A stretch of 64,000 nt of DNA, taken from Cyanobacteria bacterium SIG27 (GTDB lineage: Bacteria > Cyanobacteriota > Vampirovibrionia > Gastranaerophilales > Gastranaerophilaceae). How positions within the stretch are numbered: the first letter of the stretch is position 1; each line of letters opens with the position of its first letter. Location: positions 1 to 64,000 of the forward strand of contig SUTT01000004.1 of the NCBI GenBank assembly GCA_015152565.1. The letters run 5' to 3'. The notes beneath the pieces were generated by a model, which was not told the DNA's origin, did not search any database, and worked only from the letters and a program-made list of their open reading frames with translations. This document shows, piece by piece, positions 6,789 through 29,286 of the stretch. Position numbers and translations under genes: made by a program.

Positions 6789-8240
6789 ATGAGTAAAGAA
6801 TTTAAACAAGAATTTTCAATTAAATCTATCCCTACAGATGACACACTATTATTAGAAAATACACTTAATGCTATGAGCACAAGTGGTTGGGAATTATATT
6901 CAATTTATGAAGCAGAACAAAATTCTAAAATTGTCTATAATTGCATTTTTGTAAAAGAAACAGCAGTTGAGGAAGACGAAACAACTGATGAAATAATTAA
7001 TTTCAGAAGTACGGTTGAGCGTATGCTTTATACTAGCGATGAGCCTTACGAGCTTTGTTTAAATCTTCAAAAGAAAATTAGAGATAAAAAAGAAAAAATA
7101 GAGCGTGTTAAAAAGTTTCTTGAAAATTCAAAAGAAGATGAAAGAGAGCTTTTAAACGAAGAAATTAAAAAAGATATTGATGAATTAAATAATCTAAAAA
7201 GAGATTTAAAAGAAATTTTAGCTCCATCTAAAATGTCTAAATTTTTAGGAGAAGAAAAGCTTTCAATCAGTTTATCAAGCGAAAACTATTCATTGTGTGA
7301 TCCTAAAAATGAGAAAAATTTACTTTCTCAAACTGTTAGAGTTCGCCAAGAATTAACTAACGATTTAGGCTATATCATTCCAAAAGTACAATTTATTGAA
7401 AACGCTTCATTGGATGAATTTGATTTTTCAATTAATATCCACGGTGTAAGCGTAGTTAGCGCTAAAGCATATCCTGATTATTTAGCATTTTTTGAAGATG
7501 AGTTAAATTTTGAAAAAGCTCCAAAAGAAGCAATTAAAGAAAAAGACCCATTAACCAAAAGAAAAATGCTTTGGATTCCAAAAGAATTATGTGAAAACTA
7601 TTGGGTTGAGGGGCTTGAAGCCACAGAATATATCGCTCAATATTTAGCTCATTATTCAATTGTTCATGTTGATGAAATTTTTGATTATAAAGATTTAAAT
7701 CGCTATGTTGAATATGTAACTGAACAAAATGAATTTTTAACTGAGTCAATTTTAGGCGAATTTATTAGCGTTTCAGAGCTAAAATATATCTTAACTCAGT
7801 TGATTAGAGAAAGAGTTTCGATTAAAGATATCGTTTACATTTTTGAAAAATTAAACGATTTTTCAGATGACCCTAATAAAGCTGATTTATTAGATAAATT
7901 AAGAATATCTTTATCAAGACAAATTTCAGCTTCAGTCGCTTCAAAAGATAAAGAAATCTTAGCTTACGAGCTTGACGATGATACATTAGAACTTCTTGAA
8001 GCACAAACAAACAAAGAAGAATCTAACGTTAAAATTGATTTATCCAAGTTTTCAAAATTTAAAAAGATTTTAAAAGAAACAAGAAAAGATATAATTGAAC
8101 AAAATGCAATAATTGTTGCTCCTGCTCAATATAGACAAGTTATTTTCATTTTGGTTTCTCAATTATTTATGGATATTCCTGTAATTTCTTTTGAAGAAGT
8201 TAATTTGGATTATAAATTAACTATTTTAGGTAAAATATAA
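6789..8240 (+). CDS. Soluble FlhA C-terminal-domain (export gate) homologue with DUF4177-like head
   Basis: A 483-aa protein from the ATG at 6789; the ORF-track start at 6693 lies over the divergent neighbour's promoter. Residues about 10-60 look like DUF4177 (SGWELYSIYEAE). Residues about 75-140 are charged coiled coil. From about residue 155 to the end it follows the cytoplasmic domain of FlhA/SctV: VRVRQELTNDLGYIIPKVQF, WIPKE...GLEATEYIAQYL, LTQLIRERVSIKDIVYIFEKL, LRISLSRQIS, and a final PVISFEEV. In flagellar and type III secretion systems this domain forms a nonameric ring that docks substrates. The N-terminal half of FlhA with its membrane helices and FHIPEP signature is absent. prfB starts 2 nt after the stop. 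TAAAAT lies 7 nt before the ATG, with no SD. Confidence 0.85.
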   Translation: MSKEFKQEFSIKSIPTDDTLLLENTLNAMSTSGWELYSIYEAEQNSKIVYNCIFVKETAVEEDETTDEIINFRSTVERMLYTSDEPYELCLNLQKKIRDKKEKIERVKKFLENSKEDERELLNEEIKKDIDELNNLKRDLKEILAPSKMSKFLGEEKLSISLSSENYSLCDPKNEKNLLSQTVRVRQELTNDLGYIIPKVQFIENASLDEFDFSINIHGVSVVSAKAYPDYLAFFEDELNFEKAPKEAIKEKDPLTKRKMLWIPKELCENYWVEGLEATEYIAQYLAHYSIVHVDEIFDYKDLNRYVEYVTEQNEFLTESILGEFISVSELKYILTQLIRERVSIKDIVYIFEKLNDFSDDPNKADLLDKLRISLSRQISASVASKDKEILAYELDDDTLELLEAQTNKEESNVKIDLSKFSKFKKILKETRKDIIEQNAIIVAPAQYRQVIFILVSQLFMDIPVISFEEVNLDYKLTILGKI

Positions 8241-12806: not shown

Positions 12807-15800
12807 TTACGGCAGCTTACTTGTTTCAATTACACATCGAACCGAATTGAAACTAGCAGCTCTTGCCCCGCCATCATCATAACTACAGATTTTTCCATAG
12901 CTGCTTCCATAGTAATATGTGTAATAAGCATCAGATGCACAGGTTGAACTTGTATCTGACCAAATTACATTTGGCCAACCAGTAGAGCCACCCGCAGAGC
13001 TTTTTGGACAATATGAAGCTCCATCAATTTGATTAGACGAACATAAATTTAGCCCACCATCACCAAGATTGGTTGAATAAGTTCCCCAAGCAACCATTTC
13101 TTCAAGTTTTGGCAGCCTCCAACCGCTTAGTCCTTGTACTTCCATTTGACCACAAACTACTCTCGAAGCGGCTCTATTACACAAGGTTCTTGGTGTTGCT
13201 TGATAAGTTCCTTGTTTTGTACCGCCTAATGTTGAATAAGCAACATGACATGCACCTGAAGTTGGTGCTTTGTAATTATAATATGTACTATCTCCGTAAT
13301 TTCTTCTTTGAACACATAAACCATTAATTGTTATAGCGTCATATTTAAGACATTTATCAATTTTGCATTGTCCGCTTGTTTCATCATAAAGTTGACCTGA
13401 TGGACATGCTTCACACTTGCCATCTTTAACAAAATAATCTCTTTCGCACTTTGTGCAAGCATTATTTGAACATTCTGCACAATGCTCTATGCTTCGACAT
13501 TTATTTATTACGCAACGAACAGAAGAATAATCGCCAGCTCTTGCGCCGCTATCTGCATAAGAACAATGTTGTCCATAATTATTTATAAAACCATATTTAT
13601 GATATGCGTCACTTGCACAAGTGCTACCAGAAGTTGACCAAAACATATGAGGTGCTATATTTGTGGCCGAATTACCACAATGAGAAGTACCATATCCACC
13701 TGATGATTTAGAACAAATCATTAAACCGCCATCACCTAAATTTGTTGAATTTTCTTCCCAATCAATTTGTTCAGATATATTTGGCAAACGCCATCCAGTC
13801 AAACCTTGAACGTCTAAATTAATACAAACAACTTGAGCTGCGGCACGGTTGCAAATTGTCCTTGGGCTTCCGGGGTAGCTCCCATTTGCATCAGACCAAG
13901 AATCAGATACATGCGCTTGTTTACAATCTCCTGAGGTTGGAGCAGTGTATGAATATAGCTGGCTATCACCATAGTTTCTTCTTGCAACACATAAATCATT
14001 AATTGTTATTGCATCATATTTTAAACAAGTATCAACTTCGCACTTGCCATTTGATGAATTATATAATGTACCCTCTGGACATTTCACGCATACACCATTT
14101 TCATCAGGGTGATAATCTTTTTCGCAAGTTGTACATTTTTCATTAGTGCAAGAAACACAATGTTTATCCAGTGCTTTACATCTATCAATTACACAGCGAA
14201 CAGAATTATAATCACCAGGTCTAGCTCCGCCCTCAGCATAAGAGCAAAGAGATTTCCAAGACCCATTTAAATATGCATAGTTTGTATAAGCATAATCACT
14301 ACCATCAACGCAGCTGCCAATTGTGCCTGCCCATAATACATATGGCCATTTACTGCTAGTCAAAGGGCACCAGGAAACCCCGTTTATCTGATTGGAAGAA
14401 CAAAGCATAATTCCACCATTGCCAAGACCCTTATTATAACTATTCCAATGGCTCATCTCTGATAACATTGGCAAGCGCCAACCCGTTAAGCCTTTGATAT
14501 TCAACTTTCCGCAGGCATTTGCTGCACCTGTTCTATTGCACAATGTTCTAGGAGAGCCAGAATAATCGCCATTATCATTTGTATAATTTGTTAAAGCGAC
14601 ATTTTGAGAACAAGCACCACTTGTTGGAGCAACGTAGGTATAGTAATCACTATCGCCATAATTTCTTTTTGAAACGCAAAGATTATCTATTGCTACTGCA
14701 TCATACTTATTACATGGGTCTTTTTCGCATTTTTTAGTTGTTGGGCTGTAAGAGTAACCTTCTTCGCATTTTTGGCATTTTCCGTATTGATTTACTTCAT
14801 AGTCATAATCACAAAGAGTGCATTTTTTATCGTCGCATTCTTGACAATGATTGTCTATAGCTCTACATCTACTAATTACGCAGCGAACAGAGTTATAACT
14901 TCCTGCTCTTGCTCCACCGTCATCATAAGAGCAAATTTGTTGCCAAGATGTGCTATTATAAGCATAGTTATAATAGGCATCAGAAGCGCAAGTGTCTTCT
15001 CTTTGTGTCCAAATTACATAAGGCCAGTTGCCACTTCCTTTCGTACAACGATTTTTCCCTGCTACAACAGTGTTTGTGCATAATTGCAGCTCTGGAAGCG
15101 AACCAAAATCATTTGCTTCTGTTGAAGTTGGTAATCTCCAACCTTTCAAGCCTTTAACATCTAAATTCCAGCAAGCTGTTTTTGCTGCAGGTCTAGTACA
15201 AACAGTTCTTCTGCAGCCCGAATAGCTTCCGCTATCTTCTGTGCATGTATTTGCAGTTTGAAGACCAGTTTTGCAAGCTCCTTGTGTATTTGGAATAGAT
15301 GCATAATGATCTGGGTCATCTCCAATATTTCTTGCTGTAACGCAAAGTTTACCTAATGTTATAGCGCCATATCTTGTACAAGGATCACCCACACAAGCGC
15401 CATCAGTAAAAACAAAACCAGAATCTGCGCACTCATCGCAACCATAAGGACCAGAAGCAGTGCACTTTGCACAACCTTCAATTTCACAATCAAGACATTT
15501 TTTGGTTACTGTGTCCCAATATTTTTTGTTTAGTTCGCAAACTTGCTTTTTTAGCTCCAAATTTTCTGGAGTATCTTCTTCTGCTGCTCCACCACCACCT
15601 GAGCCACCACCAATGATAGTAATAGAAGAACTTGAAAGTTTTTTAGTGATTACTGGGGCAAGCGCTGCGGTAATTAATGAAACTATTATTAGGGCTACTA
15701 GTATTTCAACTAATGAGAAACCCGAAACGAGTGAACCTAGCAATGCTTTGCTTGGTGAACGACGTTGAGCGGCATTAGTGTGTGAAGCTCGTGACGGCAG

Positions 15801-15896
15801 ACCGTTGAGGTCTGGCGGACAGAGCGGAAACCGTACTAATTCGACGTGGAAATCTATGATTTCCTCAGGAGAGAGCACTTTGCTATTTTTTTTCAT
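12807..15896 (-). CDS. Giant prepilin-like protein with four DUF1566-like repeats
   Basis: A 1029-aa protein from the ATG at 15896; the ORF-track start at 16016 lies upstream of the likely promoter. A long 59-residue leader ends in SG, followed by FSLVEILVALIIVSLITAA, a type IV prepilin cleavage site with the Glu+5. After a Gly-rich hinge come four repeats of about 190 aa, each with a GWRLPxxxE core and ending NSVRCVI, the look of the DUF1566/C-type-lectin-like fold. Between them are short Cys-rich modules (CxxCxxxxC, e.g. HCQECDDKKCTLCDYDY) resembling growth-factor-receptor cysteine-rich repeats. It is probably assembled or anchored through the pilin helix and exposed outside. It is divergent from an XRE regulator and shares promoter and 3' UTR with the gene at 20891. 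Confidence 0.8.
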   Translation of the reverse strand: MKKNSKVLSPEEIIDFHVELVRFPLCPPDLNGLPSRASHTNAAQRRSPSKALLGSLVSGFSLVEILVALIIVSLITAALAPVITKKLSSSSITIIGGGSGGGGAAEEDTPENLELKKQVCELNKKYWDTVTKKCLDCEIEGCAKCTASGPYGCDECADSGFVFTDGACVGDPCTRYGAITLGKLCVTARNIGDDPDHYASIPNTQGACKTGLQTANTCTEDSGSYSGCRRTVCTRPAAKTACWNLDVKGLKGWRLPTSTEANDFGSLPELQLCTNTVVAGKNRCTKGSGNWPYVIWTQREDTCASDAYYNYAYNSTSWQQICSYDDGGARAGSYNSVRCVISRCRAIDNHCQECDDKKCTLCDYDYEVNQYGKCQKCEEGYSYSPTTKKCEKDPCNKYDAVAIDNLCVSKRNYGDSDYYTYVAPTSGACSQNVALTNYTNDNGDYSGSPRTLCNRTGAANACGKLNIKGLTGWRLPMLSEMSHWNSYNKGLGNGGIMLCSSNQINGVSWCPLTSSKWPYVLWAGTIGSCVDGSDYAYTNYAYLNGSWKSLCSYAEGGARPGDYNSVRCVIDRCKALDKHCVSCTNEKCTTCEKDYHPDENGVCVKCPEGTLYNSSNGKCEVDTCLKYDAITINDLCVARRNYGDSQLYSYTAPTSGDCKQAHVSDSWSDANGSYPGSPRTICNRAAAQVVCINLDVQGLTGWRLPNISEQIDWEENSTNLGDGGLMICSKSSGGYGTSHCGNSATNIAPHMFWSTSGSTCASDAYHKYGFINNYGQHCSYADSGARAGDYSSVRCVINKCRSIEHCAECSNNACTKCERDYFVKDGKCEACPSGQLYDETSGQCKIDKCLKYDAITINGLCVQRRNYGDSTYYNYKAPTSGACHVAYSTLGGTKQGTYQATPRTLCNRAASRVVCGQMEVQGLSGWRLPKLEEMVAWGTYSTNLGDGGLNLCSSNQIDGASYCPKSSAGGSTGWPNVIWSDTSSTCASDAYYTYYYGSSYGKICSYDDGGARAASFNSVRCVIETSKLP
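15727..15845. repeat. G+C-rich in-frame insert in the prepilin leader
   Basis: About 120 bp, clearly richer in G+C than its surroundings, encodes the leader residues ELVRFPLCPPDLNGLPSRAS and onward. It contains the perfect hairpin CAGACC-GTTGA-GGTCTG. The paralogous gene at 20891 has only a 7-residue leader, so this looks like an inserted palindromic element that stayed in frame. Boundaries are approximate. Confidence 0.45.
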
Positions 15897-15939
15897 ATTA
15901 TTTTTTATTCCATGTGCTAATGTAGAAATCTTAAAAACT

Positions 15940-15968
15940 ACAGTACAAAATAATAAAATAAAAGTCAA
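15940..15968 (-). promoter_or_regulatory. Promoter of prepilin-like gene 1
   Basis: TTGACT-N17-TACTGT on the minus strand, giving a transcript start near 15933 and a leader of about 37 nt to the ATG at 15896. Its sequence, including much of the spacer, matches the promoter at 20821-20849. Confidence 0.75.
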
Positions 15969-16052
15969 GCTGTATTTTTTTAAAAAACAACAGTAGAACA
16001 TTATGTAAAAAATCAATCTTCCTTTTTAAAATTGTTATAAAAGTAGGTTAAA

Positions 16053-20890: not shown

Positions 20891-23473
20891 ATGTCTAAAA
20901 AGTATAATGCTTTCTCTTTAGTTGAAATATTAGTTGCTTTGATAATTATCTCTCTAATAACGGCGGCTATGGCACCAGCCATCACAAAAAAACTTTCAAG
21001 CTCAGCTATTACAATCGTTGGTGGTGGAGGAGGTGGCTCTTACAATCCTTTTGGAAACGTGTCTTCTCAGGAAGATTGCGATAAATTAGGAGAAAATTTA
21101 TTATATGTTGAAACCGATAGCGAAAATCATACCGGAAAATGCGTTGAACATGAAACTGGTCCAACGGCTTGCAAAGATACAAACGGGGCTCCCAGTAAAG
21201 AATGTTGTAAAGAAGTTGGAGCTGTATATATATCCTCTGAAACAACTGATGGATTGTATACAGGAACACCAATTTGTATGACTTCATTCAATCCATCGGA
21301 TGATGCGAATTTTCAAACAAATGATTTGAACTTTCCAAAAATTGGTGTATCGATGCTACCCAGCGGTATTGCATGTAAATCATCAGGAAATTGTTGTTGG
21401 AAAGGTAATAGCAGTAGCAGTAATTGCGATAATGTAACAGGTTATTCTGGTTGCACAAGAACAGTTTGCCAATATAAAGCCGCAAAAGCAATTTGTGAAA
21501 ATTGGGCGCCTGCTAATTCTAAAGTAGGTTCTTGGAGGCTGCCAACGGATAGCGAATTAACTAAAATCGCAAATGTTATTTCCAATGAAACTTCTGAAAA
21601 AAGCTATATTGATAGATATATGGGTTCTCAAGGTTTAAAATTTTGCGCAACAGCAAATACATCTGGTGACGCTTGTGATGATGATGGTTCGTCAAGTTTA
21701 TGCAAGGGCGCTTCTACTCATACAAGCGAGTCGGAAGGAAATACCACTTCTTGTGTTCCATATAATATTTGGTCACTAACATCAAATTCAATGGAAGTTA
21801 TTAATGGTGGCGCAAGGATTGGTTACCTTTTAAATTCAATTACATTACCGACTGACCACGCCAATTTCGCTTTTTCATATAGATGTGTAAGTGAAAATGT
21901 AAACAAAATTGATGCAACTTATGTTGCACCTCCGACAAGAACACCTGATGAAAATGAACCAAAAAACCAAGCTGATTGTAGCGCAATTTCTCCCAACTTA
22001 TTATTTATTGAAGCAAAATACAATGGAGTAAATGGGAAAAATTTATGTGTAACTAAGTATAATACAGGTGATGTCAAAGGTCCGCAAATAAATTACATAG
22101 AAAATAGCGTTTCAATGCTTGATTCAGGAGTTTTATGTAAATCAAGCGGAAATTGCTGTTGGGGCAATGGACAAACAGCTTCAACTGATGACGTCACCTC
22201 AGTATGTACCGATAGCACAGGTGATTATTCAGGTTGTACAAGAACCGTATGTCAACATAGGGCAGCAAAAACAATTTGTGAAAATTGGGCACCTAATTCA
22301 GCCACTTATGGTAATTGGAGATTACCAACCAACAGCGAAGTTGCAAGCTGGAAAGAATATTTATTATTAGAATCTTCTTTATATAGTTTTTTAAATAGTT
22401 ATCAAGGTAAAAACGGATTACAGTTATGTTGTGACCACGGTGGGTGCAACACAACAGGCGCGGCTAATGATTGTGATGATAATTATACTAGTTCATATTG
22501 TAACGGTGCAGCCGTATTAGGTAGTTATGAAGGTTCTACATATAATACTTCATGCATTCCATCTAATTTATGGACAAATACTGCTTCAACTCTAGATGTT
22601 GCAGAAGAAGGTAAAATTTGCACAGGATATTTATTTGATTGCAATTATGCTCTACCTACTAATCCAGAAAATTATGCACTTTCAGCAAGATGCGTAACCG
22701 ACAATATAAAAGTACCATCAAAAACAGAAGATGAGTATATTCCTGATACAAATGAGCCAAAAAATCAATCTGATTGCGATGCTATAGCAAATAATTTGCT
22801 TTTTGTTAAAGCTAAATATAATGGGCAATATGGTAAAAACTTATGTGTTACAAAGTTTAATGCAGGTGAAACAAATGGAGCACATTTAACAGAGGAGCAA
22901 TATCAAAATTTAGGAATAAGTGTTGTGAATTCTTCAACTTCTTGCACAAGTGGATATTGCTGTTGGGGAAATGGTCAAACAGCTTCAAGTTCAAATTGTA
23001 CGGACATTGTTGGGAATTATTCAGGTTGCACAAGAACAGTTTGTCAATACAAAGCAGCAAAAGCAATTTGTGAAAATTGGGCGCCTGATGAACAAAGTGC
23101 GCATAAATGGCGTTTGCCAACAATTAATGAAGCAACGGGTTGGATGGACACTTTGAATTTAGAATCAAGACAATCGCATATTTTATCTATATATGCGGGT
23201 CTTAACGGCTTGCAATTGTGTGCAGGTAATGCGCTAAATGGAGCAAATACGTGCGATGATAATAGTACATCTAATTATTGCAAAGGTGCAAGTATTGATA
23301 GTACGATGGGCACTTCTTGTGTTCCCTATAATCTTTGGGTTGATGGTGTTACCAGTCTTCAATTACTTTCTAGTAAAACGGTTTTAGGATATTTATATGA
23401 CGGAACAAAAGTATTGCCTTCAAATCCGCAAAATTATGCTTTTTCTACAAGATGCGTTTATGATGGAGGATAA
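20891..23473 (+). CDS. Giant prepilin-like protein with three DUF1566-like repeats
   Basis: An 860-aa protein. The short leader MSKKYNA is followed by FSLVEILVALIIISLITAAMA, a type IV prepilin motif with Glu+5, then a Gly-rich hinge. Three repeats of about 260 aa follow, each with NLLFV(E/K)AKYNG-like entry, a CCW(G/K)NG segment, YSGCTRTVCQ(Y/H)(K/R)AAK(A/T)ICENWAP, a WRLPT core and a closing RCV. The repeats belong to the same fold type as those of the 12807 gene but lack the Cys-rich spacer modules. No pilus assembly gene is in the window. It is probably surface-exposed through the class III signal; the ligand is unknown. Promoter and 3' UTR are shared with the first gene. Confidence 0.8.
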   Translation: MSKKYNAFSLVEILVALIIISLITAAMAPAITKKLSSSAITIVGGGGGGSYNPFGNVSSQEDCDKLGENLLYVETDSENHTGKCVEHETGPTACKDTNGAPSKECCKEVGAVYISSETTDGLYTGTPICMTSFNPSDDANFQTNDLNFPKIGVSMLPSGIACKSSGNCCWKGNSSSSNCDNVTGYSGCTRTVCQYKAAKAICENWAPANSKVGSWRLPTDSELTKIANVISNETSEKSYIDRYMGSQGLKFCATANTSGDACDDDGSSSLCKGASTHTSESEGNTTSCVPYNIWSLTSNSMEVINGGARIGYLLNSITLPTDHANFAFSYRCVSENVNKIDATYVAPPTRTPDENEPKNQADCSAISPNLLFIEAKYNGVNGKNLCVTKYNTGDVKGPQINYIENSVSMLDSGVLCKSSGNCCWGNGQTASTDDVTSVCTDSTGDYSGCTRTVCQHRAAKTICENWAPNSATYGNWRLPTNSEVASWKEYLLLESSLYSFLNSYQGKNGLQLCCDHGGCNTTGAANDCDDNYTSSYCNGAAVLGSYEGSTYNTSCIPSNLWTNTASTLDVAEEGKICTGYLFDCNYALPTNPENYALSARCVTDNIKVPSKTEDEYIPDTNEPKNQSDCDAIANNLLFVKAKYNGQYGKNLCVTKFNAGETNGAHLTEEQYQNLGISVVNSSTSCTSGYCCWGNGQTASSSNCTDIVGNYSGCTRTVCQYKAAKAICENWAPDEQSAHKWRLPTINEATGWMDTLNLESRQSHILSIYAGLNGLQLCAGNALNGANTCDDNSTSNYCKGASIDSTMGTSCVPYNLWVDGVTSLQLLSSKTVLGYLYDGTKVLPSNPQNYAFSTRCVYDGG

Positions 23474-27932: not shown

Positions 27933-27939
27933 TATCTTG

Positions 27940-29286
27940 ATGAAAGAAGAATTAGAATATAAAATTCAAAATCTTAAGCAAAAAACTTCGACTGCTTTGG
28001 AAAATGCTCCTTTATACAAATATAAAGGCGTTGTTTCAAAGCTTCTGGGTTTAACTGTTGAAGTTAAATTACCAGGATTGAAAATCGGAGATTTATGTTA
28101 TATTCAAACTCATACAGGAGAAAGAAAGGCAGCAGAAGTTCAAGCTTTTAAAGGTGACGTTGCTCAGCTTTTGCTTTTATATGACGGAGAAGGCATAGGG
28201 CAAGGTTCACTGGTTGAAACAACGGGTGCGCCAATTCTTTTTCCGGTGGGAGATTTTTTGCTTGGTCGCTTAGTTAATCCTTTAGGCGAACCCATGGATT
28301 CTCGCCCTATGGATATATCTGGCGCTAAATATATGAATATTAACGGTACAATTCCTGATGCTTTTCATAGGCCAATCATCACAGAACAAATGTCTACAGG
28401 TGTTCGTGTAATTGATGGGCTTCTAACAATGGGAACAGGTCAACGTATGGGTCTTTTTGCGGGTTCTGGTGTTGGTAAATCTACTTTACTAGGTATGATA
28501 GCAAGAAACTCAGACGCTGATGTCAATGTTGTTGCGCTAATTGGAGAACGTGGAAGAGAAGTAAAAGAATTCATTGTTGATGCCCTAAAAGAAGAGGGTA
28601 TGAAAAAATCTGTCCTAGTTTGTGCGACAGGTGACCAACCCCCTCTTATCAGAATGAAATGCTTACTTGCCGCAACAACAGTTTGCGAATATTTTAGAGA
28701 TCAAGGAAAAAAAGTATTCTTAATGACAGATACAGTCACTCGTTGTGCTATGGCAGGGCGTGAAGTAGGCTTGTCATTAGGTGAACCTCCAACAATGAAA
28801 GGTTATCCACCATCAATATTTTCTTGGCTTCAAAGAGCGCTAGAGCGTACAGGAAACTCTGAAAAAGGTTCAATTACAGCATTATATACAGTATTAATGG
28901 AGGGTGATGATGTTAATGACCCTATTGTTGATATTGTTCGTGGTATTGTAGATGGTCATATTTTCTTATCAAGAAAAGTAGCAGAACAAAACCACTATCC
29001 TGCAATTGATTCACTTGGTTCAATCTCTCGTTTATTTAGTGCAATTTGTGATGATGAACACAAAGCTGCCGCAGGTAAAATGAGAAATTTACTTGCTTTA
29101 TATCGAGAAAATAAAGATTTAATTGACGTTGGAATGTATCAAATGGGTTCAAACCCTAAACTTGATGTTGCAATTGAATTAATGCCTCAAATTAATGCCT
29201 TTTTACAACAAAAAACAACCGATATTGTATCTATGGATACTACAATTGGTGCACTTAAAGATATGATGAGAAGTGTAAATTTGTAA
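27940..29286 (+). CDS. FliI/SctN-type export ATPase
   Basis: A 448-aa ATPase of the flagellar/type III secretion class, related to F1 beta. It starts at ATG 27940; the ORF track takes the preceding TTG. Walker A is GLFAGSGVGKSTLL, followed by the class-typical ALIGERGREVKEFI. The Walker B region is VFLMTDTVTRCAMAGREVGL, then GEPPTMKGYPPSIF and DGHIFLSRKVAEQNHYPAID, all hallmarks separating FliI/YscN from F1 and Rho. These ATPases unload chaperones and feed substrates to the FlhA gate. No flagellar, FliJ, FliH or ring gene is adjacent. The only other export-type gene in the window is the FlhA-C homologue at 6789. Confidence 0.92.
   Translation: MKEELEYKIQNLKQKTSTALENAPLYKYKGVVSKLLGLTVEVKLPGLKIGDLCYIQTHTGERKAAEVQAFKGDVAQLLLLYDGEGIGQGSLVETTGAPILFPVGDFLLGRLVNPLGEPMDSRPMDISGAKYMNINGTIPDAFHRPIITEQMSTGVRVIDGLLTMGTGQRMGLFAGSGVGKSTLLGMIARNSDADVNVVALIGERGREVKEFIVDALKEEGMKKSVLVCATGDQPPLIRMKCLLAATTVCEYFRDQGKKVFLMTDTVTRCAMAGREVGLSLGEPPTMKGYPPSIFSWLQRALERTGNSEKGSITALYTVLMEGDDVNDPIVDIVRGIVDGHIFLSRKVAEQNHYPAIDSLGSISRLFSAICDDEHKAAAGKMRNLLALYRENKDLIDVGMYQMGSNPKLDVAIELMPQINAFLQQKTTDIVSMDTTIGALKDMMRSVNL

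What the first reader, a model, noticed from the sequence alone, without database searches (positions are those of the whole stretch)
6789..8240. Export-gate (FlhA-C) domain without a membrane domain, fused to a DUF4177-like head
The C-terminal about 330 residues follow the FlhA/SctV cytoplasmic domain through all subdomains to its end. The FHIPEP membrane half is missing, and a SGWELYSIYEAE (DUF4177-like) domain plus coiled coil is present instead. FlhA is normally essential as a membrane gate, so a soluble form suggests a decoy, regulator, or a ring used outside the flagellar context.
Basis: partly seen in the sequence, partly recalled or inferred. Interest (0 to 1): 0.78.

Follow-up and report, generated by a model that had tools for sequence, protein, structure and literature searches.

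The report
Soluble stand-alone paralogue of export-gate ring
A group of gut bacteria related to cyanobacteria carries, besides two complete protein-export gates, a conserved stand-alone copy of the gate's inner ring with its membrane anchor replaced by another domain, apparently an added part of a second, non-motile secretion machine that was previously read as broken flagella.

Summary
It has a complete FlhA/SctV cytoplasmic domain (FHIPEP E=1.6e-46; Foldseek TM 0.84 to Salmonella FlhA-C). It lacks the membrane half and has instead a DUF4177-like head and a coiled-coil hairpin. It is not a frameshift or a pseudogene: the same architecture is in 143 of 144 Gastranaerophilales genomes screened, with dN/dS about 0.1.

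The same genome encodes two full-length gates. One is the flagellar FlhA. The other (G2) belongs to a second type III apparatus (FliPQR2, FlhB2, FliEFHI2, SpoA, rod proteins, lytic transglycosylase) that is kept where flagellin, FlgI and flagellar FlhA are lost. The soluble protein descends from the G2 side of the family, is absent from sister orders that have G2, and is kept in flagellum-less genomes.

Ring parts (linker Pro/Met, D1, D3) are conserved with G2. The GYXLI switch, the chaperone dimple and D4 are remodelled. Best reading: a soluble, ring-competent accessory of the second type III system with a new ligand, not a simple decoy. Ring formation and partners are inferred, not shown. 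I found no published equivalent in the papers searched.

The parts
6789..8240 (+). Gene for the soluble FlhA-C paralogue (483 aa plus stop)
   Evidence: dN/dS about 0.09-0.13 against same-genus orthologues
6789..6968 (+). DUF4177-like head, residues 1-60 (strand-helix-strand-strand); contains the GWELY stretch with nearly invariant W34
   Evidence: PF13783 in 24 of 46 members; model secondary structure; DUF4177/DUF1737 fold matches
7044..7220 (+). Coiled-coil hairpin, residues 86-144, in the place of the membrane domain
   Evidence: Two long helices 86-112 and 116-144 in the model
7221..7253 (+). Linker equivalent (FlhA-L), residues 145-155, with Pro146 and Met149 at the positions of Salmonella Glu351 and Trp354, shared with the G2 gate but not with flagellar FlhA
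   Evidence: role of the Salmonella positions from PMC8166844
7254..8237 (+). FlhA-C domain D1-D4, residues 156-483
   Evidence: full FHIPEP profile match is 7164-8207
7275..7289 (+). Position of the GYXLI switch (Salmonella 368-372): Gly368 is Ser in 47 of 50 soluble sequences, SSENY in this protein
   Evidence: motif function from PMC10965912
27937..29286 (+). FliI/SctN-family ATPase, assigned to the second type III system; in relative G040 its orthologue directly follows the G2 gate gene
   Evidence: TIGR01026 540 bits, above its cut-off; gene order in L044

Best explanation
The gene encodes a soluble paralogue of the export-gate cytoplasmic ring. It branches on the side of the second (non-flagellar) gate, G2, and appears to have arisen at the base of Gastranaerophilales by loss of the membrane half and gain of a DUF4177-like head and a coiled-coil hairpin. 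It most likely works as a cytosolic accessory of the second type III system: it uses the conserved linker, D1 and D3 surfaces to make, join or stack on the gate ring, and it offers a remodelled D1/D2 pocket and D4 surface to a ligand different from the standard chaperone-substrate complexes, so feeding or gating a particular class of substrate. Shown here: fold, missing membrane half, conservation, purifying selection, grouping with G2, retention without a flagellum, pattern of kept and changed surfaces. Inferred: ring formation, contact with G2, ligand and step controlled.
For: Fold. Tree: soluble and G2 sequences are separated from flagellar FlhA and reference FlhA with 100/100 support; the soluble clade is monophyletic at 100/100. 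Identity is 28-29% to G2 against 20-25% to flagellar FlhA. Kept in genomes that lack flagellin, FlgI and flagellar FliP, FlhB and FlhA but keep the second system (G010, G028, G033, G034). 72 of 117 family genomes lack a flagellar-type FlhA, and all of them that were also, except G029, have the soluble gene. Sister orders f9, f14 and f15 have two full-length gates and no soluble copy. D3 is the best-kept subdomain (60% identity within the family; 36% to G2, where G2-flagellar is 34%), while D4 falls to 19% against 35%. Linker Pro351 and Met354 equivalents are invariant or nearly so in both soluble and G2. The changed pocket is itself conserved: Thr at 459 in 41 of 50, Phe/Tyr at 440 in 46 of 50. 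dN/dS about 0.1.
Against: The gene is not in an operon with second-system genes; its neighbours vary and are mostly housekeeping genes. In G040/G045 it lies upstream of FliJ, FliK, FlgD and FlgE genes of the flagellar type. G029, G030 and G054 lack it although they have at least one full-length gate (G029 and G030 are confirmed to have second-system FliP). G141 and G242 have it without a detected full-length gate, possibly because of assembly gaps. Because both genes are almost universal in the order, co-occurrence has little power. No ring or complex was tested. SctV sequences of injectisomes were not put in the tree.
Confidence: 0.5

Rival explanations
1. It acts on the flagellum: a soluble decoy or timing switch that competes with FlhA-C for hook- or filament-type chaperone-substrate complexes.
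For: Next to FliJ-FliK-FlgD-FlgE genes in G040/G045; a soluble copy of a docking domain could titrate chaperones.
Against: Retained in flagellin-less and FlgI-less genomes. Phe459, Thr490 and Gly368 equivalents are lost. It groups with G2, not with flagellar FlhA.
Confidence: 0.12
2. It has left type III secretion altogether and is a cytosolic scaffold in another process, its FlhA-C fold reused.
For: No operon link to secretion genes; present in G141 and G242 without a detected full gate; not needed by the G2 system of sister orders; upstream neighbours include a RicT/PSP1-like gene and thymidine phosphorylase.
Against: Ring-linker and D3 residues stay as close to G2 as G2 is to flagellar FlhA, which a freed scaffold would not need. 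The second system's own genes are also dispersed over the genome, so lack of an operon says little.
Confidence: 0.25
3. It is a soluble homo-oligomeric ring that docks substrate or the ATPase complex away from the membrane, without ever mixing with G2 (a separate sorting platform).
For: All four subdomains are kept and D3 and the linker are conserved; the coiled-coil hairpin could take the place of a FliJ-type stalk (inference only).
Against: Homo-ring formation was not tested; D4, where the FliJ homologue CdsO binds in CdsV according to PMC8166844, is the most diverged part.
Confidence: 0.1
4. Decayed fragment of a gate gene or annotation artefact.
For: Membrane half missing.
Against: Same start and same 483-506 aa architecture in 143 of 144 genomes, dN/dS about 0.1, many invariant residues in head, coiled coil and FlhA-C.
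Confidence: 0.01

Closest known systems
FlhA (flagellar) and SctV (injectisome) cytoplasmic domain, FHIPEP family PF00771
   Same: D1-D4 fold, linker and D3 conservation, 14 positions invariant or nearly so across soluble, G2 and flagellar sequences
   Different: No membrane domain; GYXLI motif and most of the chaperone dimple replaced; N-terminal DUF4177-like head and coiled coil; encoded in addition to two full-length gates
FlhX, the stand-alone soluble relative of the FlhB cytoplasmic domain in Campylobacterota (listed among secretion proteins in PMC9321776; its description as an FlhB-C relative is from my own knowledge)
   Same: A separate soluble copy of the cytoplasmic domain of an export-gate membrane protein, kept beside the full gate
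   Different: Concerns FlhB, not FlhA; no head domain is known to me; here the copy has diverged in its ligand surfaces
DUF4177 (PF13783) and DUF1737 small domains
   Same: Head residues 1-60 by profile and by fold
   Different: DUF4177 has no known function; here it is fused to FlhA-C
Incomplete flagella of non-motile Gastranaerophilales (PMC4040986)
   Same: The same set of flagellum-like genes in non-motile members of the order
   Different: [quoted passage not shown] here they look like a second, conserved type III apparatus that coexists with a complete flagellum in motile members

Membership tests
FlhA/SctV export gate (FHIPEP) | N-terminal multi-span membrane domain (FHIPEP half) | tested here: not met
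   Profile match starts at position 321 of 657; the only strongly hydrophobic stretch (451-469) lies in the D4 core
FlhA/SctV export gate (FHIPEP) | Cytoplasmic D1-D4 fold | tested here: met
FlhA/SctV export gate (FHIPEP) | GYXLI switch motif in D1 | tested here: not met
   Gly368 to Ser in 47 of 50; G2 keeps Gly and Leu but not the Tyr
FlhA/SctV export gate (FHIPEP) | Chaperone dimple (Asp456, Phe459, Thr490 and hydrophobic rim) | tested here: not met
   Asp456 kept in 48 of 50; Phe459 mostly Thr; Thr490 mostly Arg, Ser or Lys; Leu461 mostly charged
FlhA/SctV export gate (FHIPEP) | Nonameric ring with linker latch | not testable with these tools
   Only the sequence pattern (linker, D3) was examined
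FlhA/SctV export gate (FHIPEP) | Encoded with other export-apparatus genes | tested here: inconclusive
   Variable neighbours; near flagellar genes only in some genomes
DUF4177 | PF13783 profile match | tested here: met
   24 of 46 members at E up to 1, best 3.1e-4, but not the window protein itself: a distant relative
Second (G2) gate as a true FHIPEP protein | Full membrane half with the charged residues known from Salmonella FlhA | tested here: met
   Full profile 2-656, E=1.4e-215; STR and KFVKGD motifs present; partner FlhB2 keeps NPTH

The most novel reading that the evidence does not exclude
Gastranaerophilales possess a second, flagellum-derived but filament-less type III secretion system as a stable, order-wide organelle, and have added to it a soluble FlhA-C paralogue that forms a mixed or stacked export-gate ring, giving the gate a second, exchangeable set of ligand sites.
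Probability: 0.3. Interest if true: 0.85.

Novelty: new variant of a known kind. Interest (0 to 1): 0.66.

Why it matters
FlhA/SctV is taken as a membrane protein whose nine-fold ring is homomeric. A conserved soluble paralogue with changed ligand sites would be a natural case of a two-component gate ring or of a free cytosolic sorting ring. It would also let one ask what the ring does apart from the membrane channel. The same data suggest that the partial flagellar gene sets reported in non-motile gut Melainabacteria are, at least in part, a conserved second type III system, so an abundant and mostly uncultured gut lineage may secrete proteins by a route not described in the papers I could search.

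Tried and rejected
Frameshift or split-gene explanation: rejected. Single-gate genome, in which the soluble form would replace FlhA: rejected, two full-length gates exist. Second system lacking FlhB: considered when no FlhB gene was found next to FliPQR2, rejected. Operon linkage: examined in 122 loci (some places counted twice, because the same genome can come from two collections), no constant secretion neighbour. A 177-aa upstream neighbour in 26 loci was considered as a partner; its own-genome relative lies about 6 kb from FliR2, too loose to conclude. The protein between FliF2 and FliH2 was folded to test whether it is FliG: no Pfam/NCBIfam match and no PDB fold match, so its identity stays open. 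First report call lacked fields.

Full report
WHAT IS THERE. Window 6789-8240 (+) encodes 483 aa. Residues 126-473 match FHIPEP positions 321-654 at E=1.6e-46, and NCBIfam FlhA residues 323-678 at 1.6e-42, better than SctV at 6.4e-26. An AlphaFold2 model from 46 window-family sequences (mean pLDDT 81.9; pTM 0.64) has a small alpha/beta head (1-60), a disordered stretch (60-84), a two-helix hairpin (86-144) and an FlhA-C fold. Against the PDB the best matches are all FlhA-C or SctV-C, E to 5.7e-21, TM normalised to the target up to 0.84. The head is DUF4177-like by profile in 24 of 46 members, though not in the window protein itself, and by fold (E-values weak).

WHERE IT IS FOUND. A scan of named genomes with the window protein gave 80 loci, nearly all titled Gastranaerophilales, Melainabacteria, cyanobacterium or uncultured bacterium; one record is titled Clostridia. 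The host is therefore a Gastranaerophilales bacterium (Cyanobacteriota, Vampirovibrionia). By whole-genome search the gene is in 54 of 57 order members of one sample and 143 of 144 of another (my count of the rows), always as an open frame of about 484-540 aa except for contig ends and two shortened cases. It is not in other orders of the class, where only full-length gates appear. dN/dS against same-genus orthologues is 0.09-0.13, with synonymous sites close to saturation in the farther pairs.

TWO OTHER GATES IN THE SAME GENOME. FHIPEP search of the own genome finds a 702-aa gate on contig 32 and a 695-aa gate on contig 7. Contig 32 carries FlhA, FlhB, FliR, FliQ and FliP, the flagellar set. 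Contig 7 carries a lytic transglycosylase, FliE, an FliF-like protein, an unidentified 317-aa protein, FliH and the second gate, here called G2. Contig 34 carries a SpoA-domain protein (FliM/FliN/SctQ-like), FliO, FliP2, FliQ2 and FliR2. FlhB2 is on contig 11 and keeps NPTH. The ATPase FliI2 is in the window at 27937-29286. Rod-like genes for this set are on contig 19. The second-system proteins FHIPEP2, FliF2, SpoA and FliI2 score below the flagellar equivalog cut-offs in NCBIfam, as they also do for SctV-type models.

THE SECOND SYSTEM SURVIVES LOSS OF THE FLAGELLUM. Genomes G010, G028, G033 and G034 (97-99% complete) have only the second-type FliP, FlhB and gate, no flagellin and no FlgI P-ring protein. 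G027 is alike but keeps one flagellin. They keep rod-like genes, and G033 also has FliJ-, FliK- and hook-like genes in a row. Of 117 family genomes at least 95% complete, 45 have a flagellar-type FlhA (E of 1e-256 or better) and 72 do not (my count). All of those 72 that were also screened keep the soluble gene, except G029. Soo et al. [quoted passage not shown] I read at least part of such subsets as this second system. That is my inference; I did not examine their genomes.

ORIGIN. A maximum-likelihood tree of the cytoplasmic domains (11 soluble, 6 G2, 3 flagellar, 3 PDB reference FlhA) puts the soluble proteins in one clade (100/100) and separates soluble plus G2 from flagellar plus reference FlhA (100/100). 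Sister orders f9, f14 and f15 have both full-length gate types and no soluble copy. The simplest history is that G2 is older than the order and that the soluble copy arose from the G2 side at its base. The tree has no injectisome SctV, so a more distant source is not excluded.

WHICH SURFACES WERE KEPT. On an alignment with Salmonella FlhA, using residue roles from PMC10965912 and PMC8166844: the linker positions 351 and 354, which in Salmonella latch onto the neighbouring subunit, are Pro and Met in soluble (50 and 47 of 50) and in G2 (6 and 6 of 6), unlike flagellar FlhA. Gly368 of the GYXLI switch is Ser in 47 of 50. In the chaperone dimple Asp456 is kept (48 of 50), Phe459 becomes Thr (41 of 50), Thr490 becomes Arg, Ser or Lys, Leu461 becomes mostly charged, and Ile440 becomes Phe or Tyr. 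By subdomain, soluble-G2 identity in D1 and D3 is close to G2-flagellar identity (34 and 36% against 36 and 34%), but D4 drops to 19% against 35%. Within the family D3 is the best conserved part (60%). The changed pocket is itself conserved, which points to a new ligand rather than decay.

MECHANISM. Best supported: a soluble, ring-competent accessory to the G2 gate that presents a different docking surface. Shown: fold, loss of membrane half, conservation, lineage, retention without flagellum, pattern of kept and changed residues. Inferred: that it forms or joins a ring, that the ring is that of G2, that it binds a substrate class, gatekeeper or ATPase component, and that the head and hairpin replace the membrane anchor as a docking handle. 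Rivals are listed in their field. The main weakness is that the gene is not in an operon with secretion genes. Near-universality of both genes also makes co-occurrence uninformative, and there are exceptions both ways (G029, G030, G054; G141, G242).

NOVELTY. In the open-access library no paper joined Gastranaerophilales or Vampirovibrionia with a type III system in a relevant way, and none described a stand-alone soluble FlhA-C paralogue. The library misses most subscription journals, so this is weak evidence of absence. I file it as a new variant of a known kind.

Noticed in passing
G000 contigs 7, 11, 19, 34, 52 (loci L035, L174, L172, L053, window 27937-29286): A complete second, flagellum-like type III apparatus with rod-like proteins, dispersed over the genome and kept in members of the order that have lost flagellin, FlgI and flagellar FlhA.
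   Followed up: partly
L035:7792-8742 (G000 contig 7): All-helical 317-aa protein between FliF2 and FliH2, the usual place of FliG; no Pfam, NCBIfam or PDB fold match; duplicated in G040 (L044:8872-10406).
   Followed up: partly
L082, L128 and 24 other loci, directly upstream of the soluble gene; relative at L053:605-1111: A 177-aa protein family of unknown function sits just upstream on the same strand of the soluble gene in 26 loci; the own-genome relative lies about 6 kb from FliR2.
   Followed up: partly
window 12807-16016 (-) and 20891-23473 (+): Two long proteins that begin like type IV pilins (SLVEILVALIIVSLITAALAPVITKKL and similar) and continue with several long Cys-rich repeats.
   Followed up: no
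G132, G149, G157, G181, G200 (genus g31) and G220: Four FHIPEP matches without a flagellar-type FlhA, and nine matches in G220: possibly further soluble copies or broken gates.
   Followed up: no
G141 and G242: Soluble gene present but no full-length gate detected at 97-99% completeness.
   Followed up: no
G000:C52:66848-68307, just right of the window: FlgB- and FlgC-like genes and a further gene in the place of FliE, scored as the stronger, flagellar-type rod genes.
   Followed up: no
G060:C1:89440-90006 and G060:C118:8091-8723 (another order of the class): Short partial FHIPEP matches (211 and 308 aa open frames) outside the order, possibly other cytoplasmic fragments or contig-end pieces.
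   Followed up: no
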